Positions 4,662 through 36,916 of a stretch of DNA of 36,916 bases are shown piece after piece; positions within the stretch are counted from its first letter, which is position 1; each line of letters begins with the position of its first letter. The notes under the pieces were generated by a model that saw only the letters and a list, made by a program, of their open reading frames with translations, was not told where the DNA came from and ran no database searches. This DNA is from a virus. Position numbers and translations under genes: made by a program. The stretch lies in IMG/VR virus record IMGVR_UViG_3300025070_000103, positions 1 to 36,916 of that record, one strand, 5' to 3'.

Positions 4662-5508
4662 TCACCACCTCCGTTAAGTACCGTGGCCCTGTAGAGTACA
4701 GGAATGTACGTAGGTCAGGGTAACAAGCATGTTTGAAGTGACAGTAAGAGCAGCCCATAGCCAGCTTCTTGTTACCGGACTTGCCGTCAGGAACTGTGTC
4801 ATGGCACAAAGGCGGTGGTTCTTGCTGCTTTACCATCTCCTTGACATGGATGATGCGCTCCTCAATGTCATCCTTCAGCACTTCATAGACAGGAGCCTGC
4901 TCATCCTCAAGGTCATACTTCAGGTAAGTCAAGTGACCATTGGCTTTGTCCATAGCCAGCCAGCCTACCTGTGTCTCACCTTCAGACCTGGCATAGCCTT
5001 TGATCTGATCTATGTAGCCAAAGGGATCATCAAAAGCAAGTGTACGTTCCTTGAACTTCTTGAATCCATAGGAACTGGCAGACTTAACGTCAGTCACTAT
5101 GCCGTCAATCTTGCAGTCCATACTACCTGAGATACCTTGGACAGTAGCTTGTGCCTGCTCATGTGTCACTGTGTGTCCTGCTAGACGTACAAACAGTAGC
5201 AGCATCTCCTCAATGAGATGTCCATACATGAACTTCACAAGGGTATGTGGCTGCATCTTCTCCTTTGGCCCTACATTATTGTAGTGATTCCATAGGAACC
5301 TATCAGTCTTGCCTATGTTAGACATGCGTAGCTTACGTGAATCAAAGTTACCACGGCTGGTAAACTCCTTACGCATAAGATCCTTACATGCTTCACCAAA
5401 GTCATCAATGATCTGTTCAGCGTCCACTGACCTATCAGGAGACTTGAACTTCACAAGATTGTATATGTCATCTATCAGGGTGTTAGTTGTTTTCATCAAA
5501 ATATCCAT
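4633..5508 (-). CDS. PD-(D/E)XK exonuclease with a four-cysteine, Cas4-like C-terminus
   Basis: A 291-residue nuclease likely to fill the role of T7 gp6 (5'-3' exonuclease for recombination and host DNA recycling), although from a different family. The RecB-type motifs are visible: GHLIE (97-100), D135 in KIDGIVTDVKS with D140 and K142, and YIDQIKGYA (Q168). Cysteines C235, C253, C256 and C262 are arranged as in Cas4/AddB-type nucleases and may bind an iron-sulfur cluster; that is inference. It overlaps the GIY-YIG gene by 26 bp. ATG at 5508 or 5496 could be the start, and neither has a strong ribosome site. Confidence 0.85.
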   Translation of the reverse strand: MDILMKTTNTLIDDIYNLVKFKSPDRSVDAEQIIDDFGEACKDLMRKEFTSRGNFDSRKLRMSNIGKTDRFLWNHYNNVGPKEKMQPHTLVKFMYGHLIEEMLLLFVRLAGHTVTHEQAQATVQGISGSMDCKIDGIVTDVKSASSYGFKKFKERTLAFDDPFGYIDQIKGYARSEGETQVGWLAMDKANGHLTYLKYDLEDEQAPVYEVLKDDIEERIIHVKEMVKQQEPPPLCHDTVPDGKSGNKKLAMGCSYCHFKHACYPDLRTFLYSTGPRYLTEVVNEPKVQEIT

Positions 5509-6043
5509 CTAGTATTTCTTTAGCCACTGGAGCCGCTATTACAAACCACTCATTCTTGTTACCATGTGTCTTCCTTAGTAACTCATGTATCTCACTCTCT
5601 GCTCTACGCCTGTCCTTAGTGTCATAGGCCTTGACTAGCACATAGTCTCTGTATGGACTACCTGTCTGGAACTGCTTTAGTCTGTCTTCTGCGTCCACTG
5701 CCATGCCTATCTTAACCCAGCTAGGGTAGGCTGGACTGTACAAGATGTACACTTGACCTTCCTTTGCGGTTTTGTAGTTACTCAGTGACTCAAATGCTGC
5801 ATCACCGAAGGACTTGTAACGTCCGGGTTTATGTAAGGGATGTTTGTTTGAGATGTACTTACCGTTTACCCACATTCTTTCTGGGTTAGATTTAGGGCCA
5901 TTACGATTATTGTGTACAGTGTTAAAACAACCTCTACATATTTTAATGTTGTTTTTTATAAAAGATTTATTTTGATTATGCTCAGTTAGTTCAACTCCAC
6001 ACTTAATACACTCCTTAGTGTGTGTCTGCCCAACTACTTCCAA
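5483..6043 (-). CDS. Zinc-ribbon plus GIY-YIG endonuclease (possible free-standing homing endonuclease)
   Basis: With the chosen TTG start at 6043 this is a 186-residue protein. An AGGAG nine bases before the TTG and overlap with the last 29 bases of the polymerase gene support it; the longer ATG frame would run 170 bases into polymerase. C12-x2-C15 and C36-x2-C39 form a zinc-ribbon-like domain, then residues 98-160 give a T5orf172-type GIY-YIG core: VYILYSP, VKIGM, R121 in EDRLKQF and E149 in RRRAESEIH. Such proteins cut DNA and are often mobile in phages. The first part is AT-richer than its neighbours. Target and role are unknown. Confidence 0.78.
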   Translation of the reverse strand: MEVVGQTHTKECIKCGVELTEHNQNKSFIKNNIKICRGCFNTVHNNRNGPKSNPERMWVNGKYISNKHPLHKPGRYKSFGDAAFESLSNYKTAKEGQVYILYSPAYPSWVKIGMAVDAEDRLKQFQTGSPYRDYVLVKAYDTKDRRRAESEIHELLRKTHGNKNEWFVIAAPVAKEILDGYFDENN

Positions 6044-7745
6044 CTTGGTACTCTCCTGTGAGCTTACAGTTGAGTCCCAGTTCAATTCCTGCTGCTTCCA
6101 AGCAGGAGACTGCAAGTCTTCCGTACTTGTCTGCTTGGTCTTCTCTGACTTCTGCTTGTACTTCATCATGGATGTTCCCCACAAAGTAATAGTCTAGTTT
6201 CCACATTGTAGCATATTCTTCCAGCAAACACATTGCTTTCTTCATAACAATTGCACCGGCACTTTGCAGTAAAGTATTGAGTGCAGAGTGTTCTGATCTG
6301 ACATGCAACAGTCTTCCGTCTAAGCCGCTAATGGTTCCTAGCTTTGCTGCTCTAACAGTGTTTTCTTTAAGATCTGCATATGCTGTGAGATTAGACATAA
6401 ATCGTTTTCTAAGTGTTTGACCAGCAGCTCTGCCTGCTGAAGCCACGCTTCCAAGTTTTTCATCTCCTGCCCCGTAGAGAAGTGCGTAGATGAAAGTCTT
6501 TGCCTGATCTCTTGATTCAAGTCCTGCAAGTTTTTGGTTAGCAGTGTGGATGTCTCCGTTAATGACTTCATTTGTGTACTCCTTGTCATCCATGTAGTGA
6601 GCCAACATACGTAGCTCAAGGCCACTAGCGTCAAAGCCCACAAGTTTGTAGCCTTCTCTGGCAACCCAACACTGTCGGCATTCCTTGCCATACGGTGAGT
6701 AGCCTGCCGGAACCTGGGCTAGGTTAGGTTTAGAGTGTGTCATACGACCAGTAACAGCACCATTAGTGTTTACATAGCCATGCACTCTGTCTGTGTCTGG
6801 GTTAGCTTCATCTACCCATGACTGCACTTGAGCAACACGCTTTTGTAACATCAGGTACTCAGCAATCAACGCTGCCTGTGGTATGTCCTTGACAGTAGAT
6901 AATACTGCTTCATCTACTATTGGCTGACCTGTTGGTGTTAGCTTTTCAGGCTTCCATCCAAAGTCCTTCAGGTACTCACCTATCTGCTGTCTTGAGCCAA
7001 GGTTGAATGGCTTGAGCACCTGCCGCATGAAAGGTTCTCTATTGCCTGACTGCTCTACCTTCTGGTATTCATCGTCGGTGAGTCCCACCTTAGACAGGCT
7101 GCCGTCCTTCTTGGTCTTTGGCACTACCTGTTTAACATCAACCCACTTAGGTTTGAACACCTTGTGTACTTCATCCTCTACAACTAGCTTGCGCTCCTTC
7201 AGGGTGGCAAGTAAGTCCATAGCGTGTCTCATGTCCAGTAGCCAGCCATTGCGTATCTGCTTCTGTACAATCCACTGCGTCTCGTGCTCAAGGGCAATAG
7301 ACTCCTTGCTAAAATCACGTAGCTCTAGCTTTATCTTGTTGTATGCCTTAGCTGTCACACGGACATCTTGGATACAATAAGCAACCATCTCATCGGACAG
7401 GCAAGTCCAATCACTGTGATCTCCTTTAGGGAACCCCAGGATTTCACCCCAGTTAGACAGCCTGTGACCTCCTTCACGTTGTGGATTAGCGAGACGGGAG
7501 AGCACTAACGTGTCCTCTACTCTACTTTTGTCCACTGTGATGTTCCACAGCTTCTCCAGCACTGGTATGTCAAAGCCTATCAGGTTGTGTCCCACTACGG
7601 GGAAGTCACCTTCCAGCGCCTTGGCTAGGCTATCACGGTCATAGTGTTCCTGAACCACACCATCCTGCATAGTCACTGCTAACCATATGGTGTCAGGATC
7701 AAGACCGTTAGTCTCTATGTCAAGGAACATAGGCTTATAGCTCAT
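6015..7745 (-). CDS. Family A DNA polymerase with 3'-5' exonuclease (T7 gp5-like)
   Basis: The replicative polymerase, 576 residues against 704 in T7. Exonuclease motifs: D9 and E11 (FLDIETNGL), N54 and D59 (GHNLIGFD), Y123 and D127 (YCIQD). Polymerase motifs: A with D372 (FDASGLELR), B with R412, K416 and Y420 (RDQAKTFIYALLYG), C with H526-D527-E528. Y420 aligns with T7 Y526 and E. coli F762, a state associated with weak dideoxynucleotide discrimination and fast lytic phages. The region between the exonuclease and motif A is short, so an equivalent of the T7 thioredoxin-binding loop may be missing. It overlaps the helicase gene by 11 bp. Confidence 0.96.
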   Translation of the reverse strand: MSYKPMFLDIETNGLDPDTIWLAVTMQDGVVQEHYDRDSLAKALEGDFPVVGHNLIGFDIPVLEKLWNITVDKSRVEDTLVLSRLANPQREGGHRLSNWGEILGFPKGDHSDWTCLSDEMVAYCIQDVRVTAKAYNKIKLELRDFSKESIALEHETQWIVQKQIRNGWLLDMRHAMDLLATLKERKLVVEDEVHKVFKPKWVDVKQVVPKTKKDGSLSKVGLTDDEYQKVEQSGNREPFMRQVLKPFNLGSRQQIGEYLKDFGWKPEKLTPTGQPIVDEAVLSTVKDIPQAALIAEYLMLQKRVAQVQSWVDEANPDTDRVHGYVNTNGAVTGRMTHSKPNLAQVPAGYSPYGKECRQCWVAREGYKLVGFDASGLELRMLAHYMDDKEYTNEVINGDIHTANQKLAGLESRDQAKTFIYALLYGAGDEKLGSVASAGRAAGQTLRKRFMSNLTAYADLKENTVRAAKLGTISGLDGRLLHVRSEHSALNTLLQSAGAIVMKKAMCLLEEYATMWKLDYYFVGNIHDEVQAEVREDQADKYGRLAVSCLEAAGIELGLNCKLTGEYQVGSSWADTH

Positions 7746-9381
7746 TTACTGCGTCCTCCTTTGGCTTACTTGTCTCTGACATTCTACCAGTAAAGTTATC
7801 ATACTTCAGGTAGCAACATGCACCAGTAAGCCCAGAGTAGCGGTTCTTGAGCACACGCACTGTTGTCGTGTTACGGCGTTCAGGGTTGTCATCCTGCTGG
7901 TCACGCTCCAAACCAATCACCATGTCAGACAATTGTGCTATAGCCTGAGAACCACGCAGTTCACTTAGACTAATCTGCCCACCGTCCTCGTGTGCCTTGC
8001 CTTGGGTACGCTTCAGGTGTGACACAAGGAACAACCCTACGCCTAGCTCCTGCACCAGTGACCGTAGCTTGGTCATTATGGCATCAATGGCTTTACGCTC
8101 ATCACCGTTGTCCTGTGCTGACACAACGATGGACAGGTGATCTAGGATGATCCACTTGCAGTCCAGCGCCTTAGCCATGTATCTGACCCTAGCCAACAGG
8201 TTGTCCTCGCTGGTGCTGCCCCAGTGGTCAAACAGGTAGAACCTGCCGGTGCCTAGGGTGTCCTCCCAGTAAGGAAACGCTAACTCAGGGTCAAGGTCTT
8301 CCTCAAGGTGCAATGGACAGTCTGCCTCTACTGACATGATGCCCAGTGCAGTCCGAGCAACATCTTCTTCCAATGCTAGGATTCCAATGTTGTCCTCCGT
8401 TGCCCTTAACAGGTAGTGCTCTAACTCCCTGACCATTTGAGATTTACCCATGCCTGACCCTGACGTGATCGTCACTAGCTCATATGGTCTAAATCCTTTG
8501 GTGTAGGTGTTGAGTCCCTGCCAAGGATACGGTATTGACTTTACCTTGATCTTGTTGGTTAGGGCATCCCATGTGTCACTGCCTTGGATAATCCCATCAG
8601 GCTGATAGACCTTGGAATTCCACCACGCAGAAGTGAAGTCTCTCACCTTGTTGGCTACCAGCATCTCACTAGCGTCCTTCAAGGGTAGCTTGACTATCTT
8701 GAGCTTGCTTGGTGAGAACAAGTCCTTGATGTCATCTATGGCCTGCTGGCCTGCCTTGTCACCGTCAAAGCAAACAACCACGTTGTCGTAACCTTCAAGG
8801 AAATCCAGGTTTTCTTTGATCTCTTTAGCCGCTGACGCTGCTCCGTTACGCAGTGAGACTACGTCCCATTTGCGCTCAAACATCTCAGAGACACTTAGCG
8901 CATCTAACTCTCCTTCTGTGATTGTTATGTACTTACCACCACCACGGCACGTTTGCTGTCCGAACAGACCTACATTTGTGGTCATGTCACCTGTAGCATG
9001 GAAGTCCTTAGTCTTCACATGGCGTATCTTGGTGGCTTTCAGTTCGTCAGTGTCAGTGCTGTAGTACGGGTATATGTGTTTTGCAATCTCACCGGAGGCG
9101 TTGTACTCCACCATGACGTTGTACTTCCTACACGTCTCTTGGCTGATTCTCCTGTCCGGTATTGCTGCTATGACTCCCGATGATGTCATGTCTTCTAATG
9201 GCCTCCTTGGTTGGGGCTGTAGCTTAACTACGTTGCCATTTGAGTTTTCATGGTGATTGCACCCTGCTGCAAAACAATGAGCCGACCCGTTGCTATAACG
9301 GGCCAGCGCATCACTTGAGCCACACTTAGGGCATGGCTCATGTTTTACAAAGGTGCTCTTTTCTCCACTAAAGGTCGGCAT
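7735..9381 (-). CDS. Bifunctional DNA primase-helicase (T7 gp4-like)
   Basis: A 548-residue primase-helicase (T7: 566). An N-terminal zinc finger uses C17, C20, C36 and C41. A TOPRIM primase core has E157 in ITEGELDAL and D206/D208 in CFDGDKAG. The RecA/DnaB-type helicase has Walker A G308-S314 (GSGMGKS), Walker B ending in D414 (WIILDH), and a later arginine-rich NRYSG stretch. It would form a hexamer that unwinds DNA and lays primers for the adjacent polymerase. It overlaps the ssb and polymerase genes by 14 and 11 bp, indicating one transcript. Confidence 0.96.
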   Translation of the reverse strand: MPTFSGEKSTFVKHEPCPKCGSSDALARYSNGSAHCFAAGCNHHENSNGNVVKLQPQPRRPLEDMTSSGVIAAIPDRRISQETCRKYNVMVEYNASGEIAKHIYPYYSTDTDELKATKIRHVKTKDFHATGDMTTNVGLFGQQTCRGGGKYITITEGELDALSVSEMFERKWDVVSLRNGAASAAKEIKENLDFLEGYDNVVVCFDGDKAGQQAIDDIKDLFSPSKLKIVKLPLKDASEMLVANKVRDFTSAWWNSKVYQPDGIIQGSDTWDALTNKIKVKSIPYPWQGLNTYTKGFRPYELVTITSGSGMGKSQMVRELEHYLLRATEDNIGILALEEDVARTALGIMSVEADCPLHLEEDLDPELAFPYWEDTLGTGRFYLFDHWGSTSEDNLLARVRYMAKALDCKWIILDHLSIVVSAQDNGDERKAIDAIMTKLRSLVQELGVGLFLVSHLKRTQGKAHEDGGQISLSELRGSQAIAQLSDMVIGLERDQQDDNPERRNTTTVRVLKNRYSGLTGACCYLKYDNFTGRMSETSKPKEDAVNEL

Positions 9382-9739
9382 CTATGCCGTTGCTGTCTTC
9401 GGCTACCTCTAGCACCCGCACTGCGTTTAGGTACGTTGGTGTGCCGTGTACAGGATCTGGGGCTGCTGTTTTGTAACTTAGACGCACTGTAGAACCCCGA
9501 GTGATGCTACCAATAAAAGGTTGATCGTTTGCGTCAATGACTTTCACATTGAATTTACTACTGAACTTCCTTTGCTTGTTACCTTCATACTCCCGCAGCT
9601 TAACACCCTGTTTGGCTAACAGATCAGCATTTTCATCGTCCAAGGTGATAGTCAAGGTGTACTTGCCTGTGTCCTGTCCGTTGTATACTTCTGTGCTGTC
9701 CAAGTGAGCAAATGCTGCTTTACCACTAACTACTGCCAT
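9368..9739 (-). CDS. Single-stranded DNA-binding protein (T7 gp2.5 / DUF2815-like)
   Basis: A 123-residue protein with alternating beta strands compatible with an OB fold (KYTLTITLDD; KFSSKFNVKVID; STVRLSYKT) and an acidic C-terminal tail ending EDSNGIDADL, as in phage ssDNA-binding proteins that recruit polymerase and helicase through that tail. It is shorter than T7 gp2.5 (232). It directly precedes and overlaps primase-helicase, and an AGAGG eight bases before the ATG is a good ribosome site. The ACTAAAG inverted-repeat cluster lies just upstream. Confidence 0.8.
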   Translation of the reverse strand: MAVVSGKAAFAHLDSTEVYNGQDTGKYTLTITLDDENADLLAKQGVKLREYEGNKQRKFSSKFNVKVIDANDQPFIGSITRGSTVRLSYKTAAPDPVHGTPTYLNAVRVLEVAEDSNGIDADL

Positions 9740-10058: not shown

Positions 10059-10297
10059 CAGTGTATCTCCTGTGACTCTGGGCCTATCAATTGCGCGTAT
10101 AAGCCCTCTAAATCCTCCGTAGAGCGGTTTTCCAAGTCATCATGTAGGTAGGCACTGCACATGGCTATCATCTCGCTAACGGACATTACGTTAAGCCTGT
10201 ACTCACTCAAGGTGTTAACTATCATGTCGCGCCTGTTTTGCTCTGGGTCAGGTTCTCGGTCATCCGTTACGTCTTCATCAAAATATGTTGTACTCAT
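10058..10297 (-). CDS. Hypothetical acidic protein, 79 aa
   Basis: An unrecognised 79-residue acidic protein. The first 20 residues are polar and probably disordered (many Asp, Glu, Pro); residues 21-75 look helical, including MIVNTLSEYRLNVMSVSEMI and a conserved-looking SAYLHDDLENRSTEDLEGLY. There are no membrane segments. It overlaps the upstream 54-codon gene by ATGA and the downstream zinc-finger gene by TGATG, so it is part of a coupled early gene chain. Confidence 0.7.
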   Translation of the reverse strand: MSTTYFDEDVTDDREPDPEQNRRDMIVNTLSEYRLNVMSVSEMIAMCSAYLHDDLENRSTEDLEGLYAQLIGPESQEIH

Positions 10298-10458
10298 TTG
10301 CTAGACACCTCCTGAAGCCCGTGCCAATCGTTTATGGCAAAAGTGATTTTCTTGTCGTGTGGGATATACAGGCTACGCTTGCCAAGATGGTACCCAATGT
10401 AACATCTACCAAATGACATTCCCCATCTTCTCTTTACTTTTCTTAAACGGTAAATCAT
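10294..10458 (-). CDS. Small basic protein, 54 aa
   Basis: An ATG-start frame of 54 codons with AAGGA five to six bases upstream and a stop overlapping the next gene by ATGA, so it is well supported despite its size. The product is basic and aromatic; MIYRLRKVKRRWGMSF is followed by beta-like segments RCYIGYHLGKRSLYIP and KKITFAIN. The second half resembles the end of its 77-residue neighbour (RYSLYMHPSKKDVYVFKIN), hinting at a shared fold or an old duplication. Function is unknown; a nucleic-acid or host-target binder is possible from charge and position. Confidence 0.72.
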   Translation of the reverse strand: MIYRLRKVKRRWGMSFGRCYIGYHLGKRSLYIPHDKKITFAINDWHGLQEVSSK

Positions 10459-10955: not shown

Positions 10956-11135
10956 TTAAATTCTCCCATCGTTGTACATTTCAAACACAAGATCAGTCAA
11001 AACGTCGTATTGATCGTCGCTTAGGTTATCCGCTGACATTGTAACACCACCGCTTTTGTAATTGTACACAATGACGTTAAACGGTGTCGGGTTAGGTACA
11101 TCATCAACGTGGAATTCAATATCTGTTATTCTCAT
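10956..11135 (-). CDS. Hypothetical acidic protein, 59 aa
   Basis: An unrecognised protein of 59 residues from ATG 11135, chosen because TTGGAG sits seven bases upstream and the ATG overlaps the stop of the upstream membrane protein (ATGA). An ATG at 11162 would add nine residues but lacks that support. The chain starts with a beta strand (RITDIEFHVDD), a second strand (FNVIVYNYKSG) and a C-terminal helix with LSDDQYDVLTDLVFEMY, so it is probably a small alpha/beta fold. Confidence 0.65.
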   Translation of the reverse strand: MRITDIEFHVDDVPNPTPFNVIVYNYKSGGVTMSADNLSDDQYDVLTDLVFEMYNDGRI

Positions 11136-11287
11136 GATGATACTCCAAGTAATAGCGCCCACATTAGGTAGACGCCAAGAATGATTGTAATAGCCGCTGT
11201 TGTTTTGTTCAACACTGAAAACACCAATGCCTCGTTTTGCTGTTGTTCGCGCTCTTCACGCCTTGAGAGTGTATAATCTGTCTTCAT
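11132..11287 (-). CDS. Small single-pass membrane protein, 51 aa
   Basis: A 51-residue protein with a charged, glutamine-rich N-terminal half (RREEREQQQNE) and one clear transmembrane helix at about 29-49 (TTAAITIILGVYLMWALLLG). It overlaps its neighbours by ATGA on both sides, which supports real translation. Small early membrane proteins in phages may block superinfection, affect membrane potential or serve lysis; nothing here selects among these. There is no signal peptidase motif. Confidence 0.7.
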   Translation of the reverse strand: MKTDYTLSRREEREQQQNEALVFSVLNKTTAAITIILGVYLMWALLLGVSS

Positions 11288-11520
11288 CGGTTCAAGTCCT
11301 GTTTGGTAAATCCATATTCCGCAAGCCTACTAAACAACAAGTCATCAAGCAAGTCTTTTTCTGACTTGTTTTTCTGTCTGTTCATGCTGATAGTGTCAGC
11401 CCAAGCTATCTGCAGGCGCACTGGTGGCTCCGTGTCTATGCGGACGTTAAAGAATGCTTGCGCCGTGTGGCAAACCTCTATGCAAGCTAGGTCGCCTTGC
11501 CTGTTTGTTATTGTTCTCAT
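11284..11520 (-). CDS. Hypothetical protein, 78 aa
   Basis: An unrecognised 78-residue protein. The first half alternates strands (LACIEVCHTAQAFFNVRID, then PVRLQIAWADT), and the second half is a charged helix pair (SEKDLLDDLLFSRLAEYGF). Two cysteines in the first strand region are too close to be a standard zinc site. Overlaps of ATGA at both ends place it in the coupled early gene chain. No function can be given. Confidence 0.68.
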   Translation of the reverse strand: MRTITNRQGDLACIEVCHTAQAFFNVRIDTEPPVRLQIAWADTISMNRQKNKSEKDLLDDLLFSRLAEYGFTKQDLNR

Positions 11521-12914: not shown

Positions 12915-12979
12915 CTTGAGAATGCTTGAGTGTACCTATATAGGTACTACACTAGCTCACACTCTTCAGCATTCTCAAG
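12915..12979. promoter_or_regulatory. Inverted repeat enclosing a 16-bp perfect palindrome
   Basis: CTTGAGAATGCT (12915-12926) and its exact reverse complement AGCATTCTCAAG (12968-12979) flank GTACCTATATAGGTAC (12932-12947), which is self-complementary over 16 bp. Extra CTTGAG and CTCAAG hexamers at 12925 and 12985 extend the symmetry. This looks like an operator or origin structure; the arrangement is read directly and its role is inferred. Confidence 0.75.
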
Positions 12980-12990
12980 CTCCCCTCAAG

Positions 12991-13129
12991 CTAACCGTTA
13001 GGCTGAGACTCTCAGGTAGACTTAGGTTAACTGTTGTACTCTGTTGCGCCCCTAAGTCTAACTGTTAGCGCCAGGTGGTGCGCCTAAGTCTAACTGTTGT
13101 ACTCTGTGGTGCGCCTAAGTCTAACTGTT
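12991..13129 (+). repeat. TAACYGTT iterons at 31-32 bp spacing
   Basis: The octamer TAACTGTT begins at 13028, 13059, 13091 and 13122, spacing 31, 32 and 31 bp, about three helical turns, so all copies lie on one face of the DNA. A TAACCGTT variant begins at 12992. Three copies sit in the longer exact unit CCTAAGTCTAACTGTT (13051, 13083, 13114), and some form CTAAC-N-GTTAG half-site palindromes. Phased repeats are typical of sites for an initiator or regulator binding cooperatively. Confidence 0.85.
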
Positions 13130-13336
13130 GGGCTAAGGGGGCTAACAACAAGGGTACGGGGGGCCGCTGTGGCTGCGTATAATTATTGTAGTAGGCACTC
13201 AAGTTCTCAAAAGTAGAATTTAGAAAACAACAGTAAATTAATAAAAAAGTAAGCATTTACTAACCTATGTAACCTCTTGTTAACACAAGTAAACTTAAAA
13301 CTTTGACTGAGTCAAGAAAATAACAGTAAAAAGTAC

Positions 13337-13365
13337 TTGACAAATGCTAAAAAGTATGCTATAAT
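13337..13365 (+). promoter_or_regulatory. Perfect sigma70 promoter for the rightward structural arm
   Basis: TTGACA (13337-13342), a 17-base spacer and TATAAT (13360-13365) match the bacterial consensus fully, with TGC before the -10 (extended -10). Transcription would begin about 30 bases before the small terminase gene. The spacer is largely shared with the second promoter at 19087, so both are probably recognised in the same way by host RNA polymerase. Confidence 0.9.
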
Positions 13366-13401
13366 AAAGAGGTATCTTAAGAAACATTAAGGCAATACAT
13401 T

Positions 13402-13803
13402 ATGGATAATCAAAATGATCCTCCTAAGAGAAAGCGAGGTAGACCTAGGAAGGGTGAGATAGTTGAGAAGACTACTGGCTCTAGGGGAAAGGTAGGTCGG
13501 CCTAAAGGAGATGCTTCAATTATCAATGAGTACAAGGCTAGGATGTTAGCTTCTCCTAAGTCTCGTAAAGTATTAGATAGTATATTTGATGCAGCACTTA
13601 ATGATGACCATAAGAATCAAGCAGCAGCTTGGAAGCTGGTTATGGACAGGATGTTACCCTTAAGTTACTTTGAAAAGGATAGTGCTGGTGGTAGGCAGTC
13701 TGTACAAATTACTATCTCAGGTGTACCTAGTACCATCTCATCACAGAATAATGACAACTCCAATGACCCCATTGAAGGAGAGTACACCAACAATGACGTT
13801 TAA
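13402..13803 (+). CDS. Putative small terminase subunit with two AT-hook motifs
   Basis: The 133-residue first gene of the right arm. The basic N-terminus has two AT-hook-like GRP cores (KRGRPRKG and KVGRPKGD), suited to minor-groove DNA binding. A helical central domain (residues about 37-92) includes ASPKSRKVLDSIFDAALNDD and AAAWKLVMDRMLP, and the C-terminus is polar and disordered. Position just before the large terminase, DNA-binding character and size suggest the packaging recognition subunit; no catalytic motif is expected. The assignment is contextual. Confidence 0.62.
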   Translation: MDNQNDPPKRKRGRPRKGEIVEKTTGSRGKVGRPKGDASIINEYKARMLASPKSRKVLDSIFDAALNDDHKNQAAAWKLVMDRMLPLSYFEKDSAGGRQSVQITISGVPSTISSQNNDNSNDPIEGEYTNNDV

Positions 13804-14146: not shown

Positions 14147-14289
14147 TGCTTACTAACAGAGAGTACAAGAAGACCTTAGCACAACAAGAGGATCTAAACT
14201 GGGACGGAGATCCTGAGTTAGATGCTGAGTATGAGTGTGAAGAAGAAAAAGACTTAGATGAGTTAGTAGTTAAGTATTTCTATGACTGA
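14146..14289 (+). CDS. Small acidic protein, 47 aa, GTG start
   Basis: A 47-codon frame bridges the gap between endolysin and large terminase. Its GTG start shares one base with the endolysin stop (TAGTG), and its stop TGA lies inside the first codons of terminase (ATGACTGA), a layout typical of coupled translation. The product is very acidic (DGDPELDAEYECEEEKDLDE in the middle) with an N-terminal basic patch. No family is recognised. It may serve mainly to couple terminase translation. Confidence 0.58.
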   Translation: MLTNREYKKTLAQQEDLNWDGDPELDAEYECEEEKDLDELVVKYFYD

Positions 14290-15538
14290 TCTTAACATAC
14301 AACTACTGGATTGGCAGCAACAAGTATGGGAAGACCCTACTAGATTTAAGATTGTAGCTGCCGGTAGACGTACAGGTAAGTCCAGACTAGCAGCTTGGAT
14401 GTTAATTGTTAATGCTCTACAGGCAGACAGAGGCCATGTGTTCTATGTAGCTCCAACACAAGGACAGGCCAGAGACATCATGTGGCAAACACTATTGGAA
14501 CTGGCGCACCCTGTTGTATCTAACGCACACATAAACAACCTACAAATTAAGTTAGTCAACGGTGCAACCATCAGCCTCAAGGGTGCTGACAGACCAGAGA
14601 CTATGCGTGGTGTGTCACTAAAGTTCCTAGTGATGGACGAGTACGCTGACATGAAGCCTGAAGTCTTTGAGCAGATCCTTAGACCTGCCTTGGCTGACCA
14701 GAAGGGTGCTGCACTGTTCATTGGTACACCTATGGGGCGTAATCACTTCTATGACCTGTACAAGTACGCAGAGCTAGAGGACGATGAGTCCTATACTGCA
14801 TGGCACTTTACAAGTTATGACAATGAGTTGTTAGACCCAGATGAGATTGACCTAGCTAAGAAGTCTATGTCATCCTACGCATTCCGTCAAGAGTTTATGG
14901 CATCCTTTGAAGCTAGAGGCTCAGAGATGTTTAAGGAGGAGTGGGTTAAGTTTAGTGAGGATAAACCTGAAGTAGGTGATTATTATATTGCAGCAGACTT
15001 GGCAAACTACGTAGACCCTACAGCGTCTTCTAAAAAACAAAATAAAAATAGAGATACAGCTTCTATTGCAATTGTAAAAATAAATGAAGATGGCTGGTAT
15101 GTTGATAACATTATTTACGGAGTTTGGACAACTCCTGAAACAGCAGCTAAAATCTTTCAAGCTGTTAGAGACTATAAACCAATAGCAGTAGGTATTGAAA
15201 GAGGTATTTCTAGAAATGCTATAATGTCTCCTCTACTAGACTTACAAAAACGCTACGGTATGTTTTTTAGAGTAGAAGAACTAACACACGGAAACAAAAA
15301 GAAAACAGACAGAATTATGTGGGCCTTACAGGGTAGATTTGAGAATGGTTTTATAACACTAAATAAAGGTGAATGGAACAGTAAATTTTTAGATCAGTTA
15401 TTCCAGTTCCCTGACCCGTTAACACATGATGATTTAGTTGATTCTCTTGCATATATAGACCAATTAGCTAAAGTAGCTTATCATTATGACTTTGAGATTG
15501 ATGATCTTGAGGTCTTAGACGCAGTAACAGGATACTAA
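14282..15538 (+). CDS. Large terminase subunit (ATPase and nuclease)
   Basis: The packaging motor, 418 residues. ATPase domain: Walker A A27-S34 (AGRRTGKS), Walker B with D119 and E120 (FLVMDE), and a coupling-like IGTP motif (147-150). RNase H-like nuclease domain: D239 (YIAADLAN), E306 (VGIERG) and D387 (HDDLVDSLAY). It pumps DNA into the prohead through the portal and cuts concatemers. The DNA becomes clearly more A-rich from about 14980 to 15500, the nuclease half, while the first half resembles its neighbours. Confidence 0.96.
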   Translation: MTDLNIQLLDWQQQVWEDPTRFKIVAAGRRTGKSRLAAWMLIVNALQADRGHVFYVAPTQGQARDIMWQTLLELAHPVVSNAHINNLQIKLVNGATISLKGADRPETMRGVSLKFLVMDEYADMKPEVFEQILRPALADQKGAALFIGTPMGRNHFYDLYKYAELEDDESYTAWHFTSYDNELLDPDEIDLAKKSMSSYAFRQEFMASFEARGSEMFKEEWVKFSEDKPEVGDYYIAADLANYVDPTASSKKQNKNRDTASIAIVKINEDGWYVDNIIYGVWTTPETAAKIFQAVRDYKPIAVGIERGISRNAIMSPLLDLQKRYGMFFRVEELTHGNKKKTDRIMWALQGRFENGFITLNKGEWNSKFLDQLFQFPDPLTHDDLVDSLAYIDQLAKVAYHYDFEIDDLEVLDAVTGY

Positions 15539-21908: not shown

Positions 21909-24779
21909 ATGCAGACTGCTAATCTGTCTGGCTACTACAACGCATTACGCAAAGGAACTACAGTATCTGACATAGATACAGTAGGGGATTACTATGACCA
22001 GTTCATTAACGAACTGTTAGCAGGCCAGGGTATTGTAGACACAGACTATGCAGAAGGCGGTAGTGTCTCAGTATCTAAGCCAACTATTAGCGGATACACT
22101 ACACCTGACTATGCTCCTAGAGAACTAGGGAAGTTCCAAGGTAATCTTTCAGCACATACGTCAAGTTCTTTAGGGGAGATCAAAGAGTTCCAATCTCGTC
22201 TTGAGCCTTTAATGGCTGAAGAGATGGCACGTTTGCAGTTTATAAATAAGCTAGACTATGAAGATGCTATTGAGCAAGCGTACCTACAGAACCCTGAGAT
22301 CCAAGCACTGTACAATCAGTATGATGTAGATCCTTTTAGAGCAAGTGCTGACGGCTCTATTTACCTGTATGACCCATTTACTTTTGGTGAGATTAGAACA
22401 CTAGAAGTAAAAGATAATGATCTAAAGAATGTAATGAAAACACTTCATTCTTTAGTTATTAGCGGGGCTACTAGTGGGTTTGGCGCTAGTTTAGGATTAG
22501 GCACTTTAGGAACTGCTGCAGCAGACGCAGGCATGTCTGCTTTTACAACAGCAGCTATGGGAGGAGATTCAGACGATGCTTTAATGGCTGGACTCCAAGC
22601 TGGCGGAAGTTCTTTTTTACAAGGTGTCTTAAACAAAGCGCCAGAGATTAAACAAACTGCTGCTTCTGACACAGTAGTAGACGTTAGTGCTGACCCTACA
22701 AGTATATACGGTCAAACAGCAGACGGCCTAACAAAAGATCCTGAAAGGTATCTGAGCAACCAACAGTTTCAAACACAAGTAGCAGGTTTCGACCCTACAC
22801 TTCCTGATCTTAATGACTATTCTCAATACAACCTTACAGCACCCCAAGTTAATTTAGGGGGAGTAAATTTAAATCCAGACTATAATTTAGCAAATTTTGG
22901 CTTATCTTCTAGAGCACTTACATCTTTACCTACAGAACAATTTACAACATATGGCTTAGGTAATTCTCTTGTATATAGACCTTCAGGTACAGAAGGGTTG
23001 TTAACAAGTAACAAATATATACAGCAGCCTAGTGTTTTAGATTTAACAGAAGATACAGATGTTTTTAATACTGTTGGAGATTATTCTGATTTATATCCAG
23101 ACTTAGTAACTCCTGTTGACAGGATAGACGTTCCTCAAACTCCTCCTACTTTTACACCTGACTTTGACTATACAGATGTAGTAGATCCTAATGTAGTTAA
23201 GCCAATTGTACCAGATTTTACTTTAGATATAGCTAATCCTTTTGTTACACAGTCTGATATTTCTGACATGTTGTCACAAAGTGGAGGTGGAGGCGGTGGT
23301 GGTTCTTTTTCAAACTTATTCTCTCCTAGCAGCATAGCTAATGCTTTACTAAGTGGAAACTTTAGTAATTTAAATGTAGATCCTGACTTATTTGGAAATG
23401 TAGACGCTCAAGCCGCTGCAGATGCTCAAGCCGCTGCAGACGCTCAAGCTGCTGCTGATGCTCAAGCCGCTGCAGACGCTAAAGCTGCTGCAGATGCTAA
23501 AGCTGCTGCAGACGCTAAAGCTGCTGCAGATGCTAAATCTGCTGCAGACGCTAAAGCTGCTGCTGATGCTAAAGCTGCTGCTGATGCTAAAGCTGCTGCT
23601 GATGCTAAAGCTGCTGCTGATGCTAAAGCTGCTGCTGATGCTAAAGCTGCTGCTGATGCTAAAGCTGCTGCAGACGCTAAAGCTGCTGCTGATGCTAAAG
23701 CTGCTGCTGATGCTAAAGCTGCTGCTGATGCTCAAGCTGCTGCAGAGGCAGCTAGACTTGCTGCAGAAGCAGAATCAGCTAGATTAGCTCAAGAAGCTGC
23801 TGCGGCTGCAGAAGCAGCTAGATTAGCTCAAGAAGCTAATAATGCTGCAGAAGCAGCTAGATTAGCTGCAGAATCCCAAGCCGCTGCAGAAGCAGCTAGA
23901 TTAGCTAAGGAAGCTGCGGATGCTAAAGCTGCTTCAGAAGCTGCTGCGGCTGCAGAAGCAGCTAGATTAGCTAAGGAAGCTGCGGATGCTAAAGCGGCTG
24001 CAGAGGCTGCTAGATTAGCTAAGGAAGCTGCAGATGCTGCTGCGGCTGCGGCTGCAGAAGCTTCCAGAGTAGCTGGGTTAAACAGCACTAGCCCTACAGG
24101 CCCTTCAGGCCCTACAGGCCCTACAGGTACTGGAGGCCCTACAGGTACTGGAGGCCCTACAGGTACTGGAGGCCCTACAGGCCCTACAGGTACTGGAGGC
24201 CCTACTGGCCCTACAGGTACTGGAGGCCCTACAGGCCCTACTGGCCCTACAGGTACTGGAGGCCCTACAGGCCCTACTGGCCCTACAGGTACTGGAGGCC
24301 CTACAGGCCCTACAGGCACTGGAGATCCTATGGGCCCTACAGGCCCTACTGGCCCTACAGGTACTGGAGGCCCTACTGGCCCTACAGGTACTGGAGGCCC
24401 TACAGGCCCTACAGGCACTACAGGCCCTACAGGCACTGGAGATCCTATAGGCCCTACAGGCACTGGAGATCCTTCAGGCACTGGCCCCGGTGATGGCTCT
24501 GGAGATGGGGATGGTTCTGGAGATGGAGATGGAGATGGAGATGGAGATGGTGATGGTGATGGTGATGGTGATGGTAGAGGCTCTGGTCTAGGCATAGGCT
24601 TACTTACTGGGCTGTTAGCAAACCAAGGAAGTGGAGTTGTACCATACACACCACAAGACTTTGAAGATTACAAGTTTAAGAAAACATATCAAGCACCTGA
24701 GTTAGTAGAAAGGTTACAGCAAAACAGAAGCTACCAACCTCCTTCAGTATTACAGGGTTTATTTAAAGGATTCATATGA
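21909..24779 (+). CDS. Large repeat protein with coiled-coil, collagen-like and Asp-Gly segments
   Basis: From ATG 21909 (AAGGA nine bases upstream) this is 956 residues. Residues 1-498 are unique; a Gly-run (GGGGGGS) occurs at about 470. About 19 copies of a six-residue AAADAK/Q unit follow (499-613), then an Ala/Arg/Glu-rich TolA-like helix (to about 724), a collagen-like Gly-X-Y stretch of GPT and GTG triplets (about 728-861), an Asp-Gly run, and a C-terminal domain of about 65 residues with a hydrophobic [13 protein letters not shown]. It may be a virion fibre or a rod-like spacer; it is not clearly homologous to anything I can name. It overlaps tail tube A by ATGA. Confidence 0.82.
23403..23744 (+). 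repeat. 18-bp tandem repeats coding AAADA(K/Q), about 19 units
   Basis: A near-perfect 18-bp unit (GCTGCTGATGCTAAAGCT type) repeats about 19 times in frame inside the 956-residue protein. Unit variants differ at third positions (gat/gac, gct/gca) and at Lys/Gln or one Ser. Copy number could change by slippage without frameshift. This array is coding, not a CRISPR. Confidence 0.95.
24088..24580 (+). repeat. Collagen-like GPT/GTG repeats followed by GATGGT Asp-Gly repeats
   Basis: In-frame repeats of GGCCCTACAGGC type encode Gly-Pro-Thr and Gly-Thr-Gly triplets to about 24490, then GGAGATGGT-like units encode alternating Asp-Gly. The triplet register is kept almost throughout, as in phage collagen-like fibres that form triple helices. 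Confidence 0.93.
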
Positions 24780-34111: not shown

Positions 34112-35083
34112 TTAAGCTACATTAGAAAACTTAACCTTCCCAACGTCACCACGTAGTCCAGCCTTCATGTAGGTGGTAGCTCTGCCTTCAAAGAAGTTCT
34201 GATGCTCTACACCTAACACATCATCAAGCCAGTTTAGTGGATTCTCTTTGACATTGTAGTTAGTCTTGAGTCCCAACTGTAGAAGCCTACGGTCAGCAAT
34301 GTACCTGATGTACTGTTGCATCTCCTTCTTGGTCAATCCTGGGATATCACCCTGCTCAAACACCAAGTCCAAGAACCTATCCTCTAGGTCAACCATCTCA
34401 CGACATGCCTGATAGATCTCAGCCTTGAAGTCATCAGTCCACAGGTCAATGTTCTCCTGCATAAACTCCCTGAAGAGCTTTGTCATTGCTTCTACGTGCA
34501 TGGATTCATCACGTATGCTGTACGTAATGATCTGCCCCATACCCTTCATCTTACCAAACCTTGGGAAGTTCAACAGGATGATGAAGCTACTAAAGAGTTG
34601 TAAGCCTTCAGTAAAACCTGAGTAGATAGCCAATGCCTTAGCAATGCTCTTCTTGTCGCCTTTAGTAACCTTCACAGCGTTGATGTACTCATGCTTGTCA
34701 GCCATAGCCTCATACTCTGAGAACGCCTTATACTCCACCTCCGGCATCCCTACGGTGTCCAGTAGCAGGCTGTAGGCATGTTGGTGTATGGACTCCATGT
34801 TAGCAAAGCTAGACATCATCATACGTGCTTCAGGTTTCTTAAAGATACGCATGTAACGGTCTACGTATCCTGCACCTACGTCTACATCAGACTGTGTAAA
34901 CAGACGGAAGATCTGAGTCAGTAGATTCTTCTCTTCATCAGTCATTGTCTGCCAATCTTTGACATCATTGTGTAGAGGTACATCCTCTGGGAACCAGTGC
35001 ATCTGATTCTGTTGTGAGTAGTAGTCAAACATCCAAGGATGGTCAAACGGTTTGTAGTAATCTCTAGTATCTAATAAGCTCAT
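34112..35083 (-). CDS. nrdB: Ribonucleotide reductase small (beta) subunit, complete
   Basis: A 323-residue radical-forming subunit. Iron ligands fit class I: D66, E97, H100, E159, E193 and H196, with the radical tyrosine Y104 four residues after H100 (MESIHQHAY). The C-terminus (KAGLRGDVGKVKFSNVA) would dock to NrdA. It is the last gene of the leftward operon, next to the terminator, with an ATGA overlap to its upstream neighbour. A conventional iron-tyrosyl enzyme is inferred; manganese use cannot be excluded. The left end of the window repeats its first part. Confidence 0.95.
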   Translation of the reverse strand: MSLLDTRDYYKPFDHPWMFDYYSQQNQMHWFPEDVPLHNDVKDWQTMTDEEKNLLTQIFRLFTQSDVDVGAGYVDRYMRIFKKPEARMMMSSFANMESIHQHAYSLLLDTVGMPEVEYKAFSEYEAMADKHEYINAVKVTKGDKKSIAKALAIYSGFTEGLQLFSSFIILLNFPRFGKMKGMGQIITYSIRDESMHVEAMTKLFREFMQENIDLWTDDFKAEIYQACREMVDLEDRFLDLVFEQGDIPGLTKKEMQQYIRYIADRRLLQLGLKTNYNVKENPLNWLDDVLGVEHQNFFEGRATTYMKAGLRGDVGKVKFSNVA

Positions 35084-35394
35084 TTTGCAATCACCCCGTA
35101 TTTAATCATTTCTTTTTCAGTTAAGTAGTGTATGTTAAAGTCTAAGGGAAACAGAGAAATAATAAACCTGCCTCGCTCATCCTCTAACCCACCATTAGCA
35201 AAACCTATCCTGAAACCTTCTGCTAAGTTTTGTAGTCTAATTTCTAAACCTAAGTTTGGCCCTGTCCAAAACTCTAAAGACCAATCATACCAAGAATACT
35301 TAACATTAAGTATTTCTGTCCCTTCAGGAAAGCCTGTAGTTTCCATTTCAGTTACAAACCTTACTTTAGGTGCCCAGTATTTTAGCAAGCTCAA
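35080..35394 (-). CDS. Hypothetical protein, 104 aa, second copy
   Basis: The same coding sequence as 737-1051 (aromatic-rich, unknown function). Here its position just upstream of complete nrdB is visible without the window edge, with the stop and nrdB start overlapping by ATGA. It counts as one gene with the first copy. Confidence 0.75.
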   Translation of the reverse strand: MSLLKYWAPKVRFVTEMETTGFPEGTEILNVKYSWYDWSLEFWTGPNLGLEIRLQNLAEGFRIGFANGGLEDERGRFIISLFPLDFNIHYLTEKEMIKYGVIAK

Positions 35395-35696
35395 GCTGCA
35401 TCTCCCTCTTTGATAAAGACACCATGACTGTTCATATGTCCCTTACGATCTTTAATATCATCATACGCTACCTTCAGGCATTCCTCTAGGGTAGTGTCAT
35501 TCATAATGGCTAAGGTGTTTAACACCACCAAGCAGTCACCAATGTCATCAGTAACATCACGCTGCTTGGCTATGTTGTCCCCTAGCTCTCCTACCTCAGA
35601 CACAAGTTTAGCAAACTGTGCAAGAGGTGTGCTATTGTTAATTATACCACGCTTCATAGCCCACAGGCTAATCAGATGTATCAGTTCATCACTCAT
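35391..35696 (-). CDS. MazG-like pyrophosphohydrolase, second copy
   Basis: The same as 1048-1353. The E34/E37 and D51/D54 metal residues are unchanged. One gene with the first copy if the genome is circular. Confidence 0.82.
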   Translation of the reverse strand: MSDELIHLISLWAMKRGIINNSTPLAQFAKLVSEVGELGDNIAKQRDVTDDIGDCLVVLNTLAIMNDTTLEECLKVAYDDIKDRKGHMNSHGVFIKEGDAA

Positions 35697-35908
35697 CCTA
35701 CTTCATGTCCTGCCATAATTACTGCTTGCTTGAATACTTCCACCAAGTAGATGGTTTCCTTCAAGTCCATAGACTCTGTAGCCTTAGCTGTCAGAGCGTC
35801 ATCTTCAGTCCACCCTAGTACCAGTACGTGATTAAACTCACCCTTACAGTCCTCTAGTACCTCGTCAGCGGTTGCCTGGGTAGGCATTAGGTTAATTACG
35901 TTACTCAC
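35693..35908 (-). CDS. Hypothetical protein, 71 aa, GTG start, second copy
   Basis: The same as 1350-1565, again with the GTG start overlapping the preceding stop. Confidence 0.65.
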   Translation of the reverse strand: MSNVINLMPTQATADEVLEDCKGEFNHVLVLGWTEDDALTAKATESMDLKETIYLVEVFKQAVIMAGHEVG

Positions 35909-36104
35909 TAAAATGTGTCTCCAATACAATCAGTTTATCTTCTGCTTCAGCAATCTTCTGCACCAGCTTGTCCATAGTCTCAATCAAGTTACCATGCTCA
36001 CCTACAGCCACAGGATTTTCTAGGTAGTTCTGCACCTCTGCCTTGTACACGTCTATCTCAGCGTTGTACAGGCGCTTCATGGCGCTAATCTTTGGATCTA
36101 TCAT
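35901..36104 (-). CDS. Hypothetical helical protein, 67 aa, second copy
   Basis: The same as 1558-1761. Confidence 0.68.
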   Translation of the reverse strand: MIDPKISAMKRLYNAEIDVYKAEVQNYLENPVAVGEHGNLIETMDKLVQKIAEAEDKLIVLETHFSE

Positions 36105-36225
36105 TAAATTGTTTCTCCAGTAGTTTCTTGTTTATCTTCAGATATTCTTTGTAGCTTAGACTTCCCTTCTGCTCCACATAAGCTGCCCACTGTTGTAGGC
36201 AGTATGTGTTGAACTTATCCTTCAC
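36085..36225 (-). CDS. Small hypothetical protein, 46 aa, GTG start, second copy
   Basis: The same as 1742-1882; its start again lies inside the end of nrdA. Confidence 0.5.
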   Translation of the reverse strand: MKDKFNTYCLQQWAAYVEQKGSLSYKEYLKINKKLLEKQFNDRSKD

Positions 36226-36916
36226 AACTTAAACATTCCCCTTCCTCAAGGTTGATCCTTGGGATCTTGATGTTAACATTCTCTGTATTTCTAGCCGCTG
36301 TAGTTCGCAGGTAATACATAGATTTGAGTTTGTTAGCTCCTGTCCAATGTACGCTATTAACATACTCCAGATACTCATCGTGTACCTCCTGTGGCGCTGT
36401 AGCTGGTGGTGGTTCAAAGAACAGATTTACTGACTGTGCTTGGCAGACGTACTTCTGTCTTTGGTAGGCGTGTTCAATGACCCAAATTTGGTTAAGTTCA
36501 GGCGCTGTCTTAAATACGGCCTTCTCTTCTTCCGTGAGTTCCGGTATTTCTTTAACAGAGCCTTCAGCAGCAGCAATATCTTTCCACGTTTTCTCGGTGT
36601 TGGCACCTTTCTCTTCAAGTAGTTTCTCCAAGTATTTGTTTTTAACTTTGTACGAGCCTGTTAAAGTCTTGTGCGTAAATACGTTAGCCCTTGTAGGCTC
36701 AATAGAAGGACTTGTTCCACCACATATAATACTGCTACTAGCATTAGGGGCAATAGCAAGCAGATGGGAATTACGACGGCCACTACCAGCCATGTCAGGA
36801 GCCTCCCCACGGTCTCTAGCCAGACTTCTGGAAGCCACCTCAGATCTTTCTTTGATTGTCTTAAACGCTCTATTGTTGAAGCTGGAGGCGTACATTCCTT
36901 CAAAAGGGATTCCATT
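36215..36916 (-). CDS. nrdA: Ribonucleotide reductase large subunit, partial copy (N-terminus beyond the window)
   Basis: The C-terminal 233 or so residues of the same nrdA found complete at 1872-3755, cut by the right window edge. It includes the YY radical-transfer pair and the CLSC tail. It is not a pseudogene: the truncation is only the end of the given sequence. Confidence 0.93.
   Translation of the reverse strand, partial: NGIPFEGMYASSFNNRAFKTIKERSEVASRSLARDRGEAPDMAGSGRRNSHLLAIAPNASSSIICGGTSPSIEPTRANVFTHKTLTGSYKVKNKYLEKLLEEKGANTEKTWKDIAAAEGSVKEIPELTEEEKAVFKTAPELNQIWVIEHAYQRQKYVCQAQSVNLFFEPPPATAPQEVHDEYLEYVNSVHWTGANKLKSMYYLRTTAARNTENVNIKIPRINLEEGECLSCEG

What the first reader, a model, noticed from the sequence alone, without database searches (positions are those of the whole stretch)
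12991..13129. Helically phased TAACTGTT iterons in the divergent region
Four TAACTGTT copies spaced 31, 32 and 31 bp, plus a TAACCGTT 36 bp upstream, lie on one DNA face beside an AT-rich tract between the two transcription arms. T7-like phages usually start replication from phage RNA polymerase promoters, but this phage shows no such polymerase, so it may use a different initiation or control system based on iterons. The binding protein would be one of the unknown early genes.
Basis: partly seen in the sequence, partly recalled or inferred. Interest (0 to 1): 0.72.

Follow-up and report, generated by a model that had tools for sequence, protein, structure and literature searches.

The report
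Swappable iteron array at phage origin
Between the two gene arms of an uncultured marine phage lies a row of evenly spaced protein-binding sites beside easily melted DNA; related phages keep the melting element but replace the row with other sites, often those of the host initiator DnaA, so this is probably a replication start (or early-gene switch) with an exchangeable landing pad.

Summary
The repeats are real, and part of something larger. The octamer is the core of a ~16-bp site, CTWAGNNTAACYGTTG, found exactly four times in the genome, all in this array, on one strand, 31/32/31 bp apart. The TAACCGTT 36 bp upstream is degenerate and about half a turn out of phase. To the right lie a G-rich block, the least stable 200 bp of the genome, and a perfect sigma70 promoter. 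There is no phage RNA polymerase and no DnaA gene.

Searches of IMG/VR gave about 40 contigs of this locus with this array (spacing mostly 31). Related phages keep the G-rich and AT-rich module but carry other arrays in the same slot: up to ten perfect DnaA boxes, two to four sigma54-like elements, mixtures, or other repeats. Phages with identical TerL can have different arrays, yet the TAACTGTT array is one clade on the primase-helicase and SSB trees. It travels with the replication arm.

Best explanation: an iteron-type replication origin (possibly also early-promoter control) whose initiator array has been exchanged; here the binder is probably a left-arm protein, not yet identified. Origin function is inferred, not shown. 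New variant of a known kind.

The parts
12992..12999 (+). degenerate/variant iteron core TAACCGTT, 36 bp upstream of the main array and out of helical phase with it
   Evidence: several relatives carry a fuller copy here (CCTAAGTCTAACCGTTAG in L003, L009)
13021..13035 (+). iteron 1, CTTAGGTTAACTGTT
13052..13066 (+). iteron 2, CTAAGTCTAACTGTT
13084..13098 (+). iteron 3, CTAAGTCTAACTGTT
13115..13129 (+). iteron 4, CTAAGTCTAACTGTT
13130..13165 (+). G-rich block next to the array; present in nearly all array types (GGGGCGGGGGAGGGG or similar)
13176..13365 (.). AT-rich element (27% GC), the candidate unwinding element; overlaps the least stable 200 bp of the genome (13210-13409); conserved across array types
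13182..13210 (-). weak candidate leftward sigma70 promoter (TTGAGA-17-AATAAT); its transcript would run through the array; not well conserved (TTAAGT in L035)
13337..13365 (+). consensus sigma70 promoter TTGACA-17-TATAAT with extended -10, for the right arm
   Evidence: conserved in relatives
13402..13803 (+). first right-arm gene, 133 aa with two AT-hook-like motifs (RGRPRK, GRPKG); candidate small terminase
   Evidence: sequence read; no Pfam, PHROGs or phage-collection match
14282..15538 (+). terminase large subunit
11284..11520 (-). 78-aa protein found in 20 of 21 left arms with this array and 0 of 21 without: candidate partner, function unknown
11132..11287 (-). 51-aa protein with a hydrophobic C-terminal half, same distribution (20/21 vs 0/21)
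10294..10458 (-). 54-aa basic protein in 19 of 21 A arms and 1 of 21 others (L027, no TAACTGTT array)
9368..9739 (-). gp2.5-like ssDNA-binding protein; array type A is one clade on its tree
7735..9381 (-). T7-type DNA primase/helicase; array type A is one clade on its tree
6015..7745 (-). family A DNA polymerase

Best explanation
The divergent region is the phage's replication origin, built like an iteron origin. SHOWN: four direct ~16-bp sites at three-turn spacing, a G-rich block, a very unstable AT-rich element, and the same layout in relatives with the array exchanged for DnaA boxes, sigma54-like elements or other repeats. INFERRED: a sequence-specific protein, most likely encoded in the left (replication) arm and inherited with it, loads cooperatively on the phased iterons. 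It wraps or strains the DNA and opens the adjacent AT-rich element, where the phage primase-helicase and family A polymerase are loaded, so no phage RNA polymerase is needed. Forks would leave in both directions, co-directional with the two gene arms. In sister phages with DnaA boxes, host DnaA would do the opening at the same element. The same protein may also control leftward early transcription.
For: Cluster far beyond chance. Conserved in about 40 viral contigs of this locus, spacing 31 (69 times), 32 (19), 29 (8); the two-site pattern is in none of 84,980 bacterial and archaeal genomes. Invariant AAC.GTT core plus CTWAG half. Least stable 200 bp of the genome next to it. The same slot holds 5-10 perfect TTATCCACA boxes in sister phages against 0.03-0.05 expected, and such boxes are nearly confined to the array in the two type-B contigs checked. 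G-rich and AT-rich elements are conserved across array types. Array A is one clade on the primase-helicase (98*) and SSB trees but needs at least 6 changes on TerL, with identical TerL carrying different arrays. No phage RNA polymerase and no DnaA gene. GC- and AT-skew minima at 12,996 and 13,134. Lambda's origin is likewise four iterons plus an AT-rich tract (PMC7466680), and plasmid iterons are generally in helical phase (PMC5043065).
Against: No replication mapping exists. The skew minima coincide with the change of gene orientation. No Rep-like initiator or helicase loader was recognised. Sigma54-like elements in the same slot of other relatives look like transcription signals, not origin parts. 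Array A could track the replication arm simply because it is that arm's promoter region, or because A is a single clade. The strict DnaA-box/spacer/DnaA-trio layout (spacer at most 16 bp, PMC8287927) is not met even in DnaA-box relatives, where about 45 bp separate the last box from the conserved TAG motif.
Confidence: 0.5

Rival explanations
1. Transcription control hub: the iterons are operators of a phage or host regulator that represses or activates the leftward early operon (and possibly the strong rightward promoter). Other lineages use DnaA, sigma54 or other regulators in the same slot.
For: The array sits between divergent transcription units; a candidate leftward promoter lies just right of it. 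In 16 or so relatives the slot holds 2-4 near-consensus sigma54 elements, mostly on the leftward strand, TGGCAYR-N4-TTGCW, against 0.00-0.01 expected. The array is inherited with the left arm.
Against: Arrays of up to ten DnaA boxes and a conserved unstable element are more than an ordinary promoter needs. The iterons are over 200 bp from the rightward -35 box. The leftward promoter candidate is not well conserved.
Confidence: 0.3
2. Packaging start (pac) or terminase-related site: the AT-rich element upstream of the first right-arm gene is recognised by an AT-hook small terminase, and the iterons position it.
For: The first right-arm gene encodes AT-hook-like motifs next to the AT-rich element and lies 0.5 kb before TerL. 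Contig ends of relatives fall at many places, as expected for circularly permuted headful genomes.
Against: The array does not travel with TerL: identical TerL proteins go with different arrays. DnaA boxes make no sense as a pac signal.
Confidence: 0.08
3. Titration sites: a sink that withdraws a host DNA-binding protein (DnaA in sister phages, sigma54 in others, an unknown factor here) to disturb host replication or regulation.
For: Some arrays are perfect host-protein sites, and closely related phages switch between them (L041 vs L036).
Against: A sink need not sit at one fixed place beside a conserved G-rich/AT-rich element, nor keep 31-bp spacing. The exact two-site pattern of the A array was not found in host genomes.
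Confidence: 0.07

Closest known systems
Bacteriophage lambda origin (O-protein iterons plus AT-rich tract)
   Same: Four initiator-type repeats beside an AT-rich, easily melted tract (PMC7466680, PMC5043065); number of repeats varies among relatives.
   Different: Lambda iterons are inverted-repeat ~19-bp sites inside the O gene; here they are direct ~16-bp sites 31 bp apart in an intergenic region, separated from the AT tract by a G-rich block. No O-like gene found; replisome is T7-like.
Iteron plasmid origins (P1, R6K, RK2 type)
   Same: Direct repeats in helical phase beside an AT-rich region (PMC5043065); DnaA sites occur in such origins and in sister phages here.
   Different: No Rep gene recognised, no plasmid match. 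DnaA boxes replace the iterons rather than accompany them in the TAACTGTT lineage.
DnaA-dependent oriC / basal unwinding system
   Same: Sister phages have arrays of perfect DnaA boxes, a G/C-rich spacer and an AT-rich element at the same locus.
   Different: The window has no perfect TTATCCACA anywhere, and in the sister phages the spacing to any DnaA-trio exceeds the published limit.
T7-type primary origin (phage RNA polymerase promoter plus AT-rich region)
   Same: T7-like polymerase, primase-helicase and SSB; AT-rich element beside promoters.
   Different: No phage RNA polymerase gene; a phased iteron array instead.
HMO-2011-type marine podoviruses
   Same: Distantly related portal protein (21-25% identity); marine.
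   Different: 52-56 kb genomes against 34.3 kb; no named relative of this lineage was found in the phage collection.

Membership tests
Iteron-type replication origin | several direct repeats of a specific site | tested here: met
   Four CTWAGNNWAACYGTT sites, absent elsewhere in the genome; conserved in relatives
Iteron-type replication origin | repeats in phase with the DNA helix | tested here: met
   31/32/31 bp here; 31 in 69 and 32 in 19 of about 107 intervals in relatives. The fifth copy at 36 bp is out of phase
Iteron-type replication origin | adjacent AT-rich unwinding element | tested here: met
   13210-13409 is the least stable 200 bp of the genome; conserved. That it unwinds is not tested
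Iteron-type replication origin | cognate initiator protein encoded by the replicon | tested here: inconclusive
   No Rep/O-like domain. 78-aa and 51-aa proteins co-occur with the array but binding is unknown
Iteron-type replication origin | replication starts there | not testable with these tools
   needs reads or a living phage; skew minimum is confounded by gene orientation
DnaA-dependent origin (oriC/BUS) | DnaA boxes TTATCCACA | tested here: not met
   None in the window; met in sister phages such as L054, L024, L015
DnaA-dependent origin (oriC/BUS) | DnaA box within 16 bp of at least three DnaA-trios | tested here: not met
   In the sister phages about 45 bp separate the last box from the conserved TAG motif (read by eye; criterion from PMC8287927)
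T7-type origin | phage-encoded single-subunit RNA polymerase | tested here: not met
   PF00940 absent, positive control rings
Lambda-type origin | iterons inside the initiator gene (O) | tested here: not met
   Array is intergenic; the only overlapping long ORFs (63 aa, 13065-13256 -; 50 aa, 12916-13068 +) look spurious

The most novel reading that the evidence does not exclude
A plug-in origin: a lineage of T7-replisome phages without RNA polymerase keeps one conserved melting module and swaps the initiator landing pad beside it, between host DnaA boxes, sigma54-type sites and dedicated phage iterons. The origin opener is thus replaced by recombination while the rest of the genome stays the same.
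Probability: 0.3. Interest if true: 0.8.

Novelty: new variant of a known kind. Interest (0 to 1): 0.58.

Why it matters
How phages with a T7-like replisome but no phage RNA polymerase start replication is rarely known. This locus, abundant in marine viromes, offers a natural experiment: the same melting module paired with different initiator arrays, including host DnaA boxes. It makes the question testable by exchanging arrays, and it shows control or origin parts being swapped by recombination independently of the structural genes.

Tried and rejected
(1) RNA element: Rfam gave only chance matches. Folding energies of the region are low against mononucleotide shuffles, but the hairpin 12915-12979 left of the array loses its left arm in most relatives, and much of the remaining pairing comes from the repeats and the inverted copy of CCTAAGTCT. 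Not pursued. (2) Host copies of the array: the two-site pattern is absent from genome contigs. (3) Host identity: TerL relatives in genomes are four stray contigs in unrelated MAGs, uninformative. (4) Plasmid relatives: none; phage hits with the 501-bp region cover only the promoter stretch at marginal E-values. (5) 78-aa candidate binder: AlphaFold pLDDT 86, no PDB or viral fold match at E<=0.001. 54-aa candidate: poor model. (6) GC skew as proof of an origin: rejected because gene orientation changes at the same place. (7) Four pattern hits (L110, L119, L121, L135) are not this locus: L119, L121 and L135 share a coding-like repeat, L110 has a different context.

Full report
THE OBSERVATION. 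The four TAACTGTT copies are at 13028, 13059, 13091 and 13122, with TAACCGTT at 12992. The octamer alone is no commoner than chance genome-wide, but no shuffled genome in 200 held any 8-mer four times within 102 bp. The site is longer than eight bases: 156 units from 34 arrays give CCTWAGTCTAACYGTTG, with AAC.GTT nearly invariant. CTWAGNNWAACYGTT occurs exactly four times in the genome, all in this array and on one strand. The 36-bp step to the fifth copy is about half a turn off, so only four copies share a DNA face.

THE GENOME. The record has an exact 2,573-bp terminal repeat, giving a 34,343-bp unit. Contig ends of relatives fall at scattered map positions, as expected for circular maps or permuted genomes. 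The left arm encodes family A polymerase, T7-type primase-helicase, gp2.5-like SSB, endonuclease, Cas4-like exonuclease and ribonucleotide reductase; the right arm encodes TerL, portal, head and tail proteins. No single-subunit RNA polymerase is present, with a working positive control, and no DnaA domain. The portal is distantly HMO-2011-like. No named phage is close.

SURROUNDINGS. From left to right: array (12991-13129), G-rich block (13130-13165), AT-rich element (13176-13365, 27% GC; 13210-13409 is the least stable 200 bp of the genome), and a consensus sigma70 promoter TTGACA-17-TATAAT at 13337-13365. The first right-arm gene then encodes two AT-hook-like motifs. Skew minima fall at 12,996 (GC) and 13,134 (AT) with maxima at about 34.1 kb, but gene orientation changes at the same points, so this is only compatible with an origin, not proof.

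RELATIVES. A TerL search returned at least 600 related stretches in IMG/VR, of which 80 were kept. Twelve of these carry TAACTGTT arrays at the same place, and aligned arrays are strongly conserved. A two-site DNA pattern found 41 stretches in IMG/VR, 37 of them this locus, with spacing 31 (69), 32 (19), 29 (8), and none in 84,980 bacterial and archaeal genomes. Other relatives hold different arrays in the same slot. Type B has DnaA boxes, up to ten perfect TTATCCACA against 0.03-0.05 expected, often 11 bp apart. Type C has two to four TGGCAYR-N4-TTGCW elements, the sigma54 -24/-12 consensus as known to me, mostly on the leftward strand, against 0.00-0.01 expected. L011, L057 and L065 mix both, and L041 has type C flanks with DnaA boxes. 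Others carry TTGCATTCTGC-like or AAACAATC repeats. The G-rich block and AT-rich element to the right are conserved across these types.

INHERITANCE. On the TerL tree the TAACTGTT array needs at least 6 changes (4 if only strongly supported branches are counted), and identical TerL proteins carry different arrays: L027 (C) and L114 (A); L015 (B) and L016/L018 (C). On the primase-helicase tree the array is one clade (1 change, support 98*), and also one change on the SSB tree. Pairwise scans put the switch in similarity between the array and terS/TerL, with unrelated sequence to the left and 95-100% identity to the right. The array is only ~1.1 kb from TerL and ~3.6 kb from the primase gene, so this linkage is not explained by distance. 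Types B and C switch between phages with near-identical primase (L041 and L036, 97%), as expected if their partners are host proteins. Type A does not, as expected if its partner is phage-encoded; but type A may also be a single event, so this is suggestive only.

CANDIDATE BINDER. Two small left-arm proteins occur in 20 of 21 A arms and in none of 21 others: 78 aa (11284-11520) and 51 aa with a hydrophobic C-terminal half (11132-11287). The 78-aa protein folds confidently (four strands, three helices, pLDDT 86) but matches nothing. None has a recognisable DNA-binding domain. The binder is therefore not identified, and a host protein is not excluded.

MECHANISM. The most economical reading is an iteron origin: phased array, strained DNA, opening of the AT-rich element, loading of the phage primase-helicase and polymerase in both directions. 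The array anatomy, the conserved melting element and the DnaA-box replacement are shown by sequence. The protein, the opening and the start of replication are inferred. Transcriptional control of the left arm is the main rival, and both may be true together.

COMPARISON. Lambda's origin is four iterons plus an AT-rich tract (PMC7466680), and plasmid iterons are generally in helical phase and disturbed by changed phasing (PMC5043065). The window's array works like these if the reading is right, but membership is left open because the defining initiator gene was not found. The strict basal unwinding system is not met even in DnaA-box relatives (PMC8287927). Literature searches of the held library found no description of such a phage locus, which covers only open-licence papers.

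Noticed in passing
L004, L005, L007, L010, L012, L016, L018, L027, L030, L036, L073 (upstream of TerL): Two to four near-consensus sigma54 (-24/-12) elements, mostly pointing into the left arm, in the slot that holds the iterons in the window. Sigma54-type sites in tandem in phages of this kind look unusual and deserve their own study.
   Followed up: partly
L014, L015, L019, L023, L024, L026, L038, L039, L045, L048, L054: Arrays of perfect DnaA boxes, often 11 bp apart, in phages with a T7-like replisome; no DnaA gene in the type-B records searched.
   Followed up: partly
L011, L041, L057, L065: Hybrid arrays with both DnaA boxes and sigma54-like elements or their remnants.
   Followed up: partly
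1-2573 and 34344-36916: Exact 2,573-bp repeat of the two ends of the record; the unit genome is 34,343 bp.
   Followed up: yes
12915-12979: A strong imperfect hairpin left of the array; most relatives keep only its right arm, so it seems peculiar to this phage and near kin such as L008.
   Followed up: partly
13402-13803: First right-arm gene encodes AT-hook-like motifs and starts right after the AT-rich element; possible small terminase without database match.
   Followed up: partly
5483-6184 (-): 233-aa ORF overlapping the 3' end of the polymerase gene; C-terminal part reads like a GIY-YIG/T5orf172-type domain (from memory, not tested).
   Followed up: no
23400-24450: Clustered short repeats inside the 969-aa tail-fibre gene.
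   Followed up: no
L099:6921-7796: A gene that reads like a DNA cytosine methyltransferase sits between the 79-aa and 54-aa early genes in a close relative and is missing from the window.
   Followed up: no
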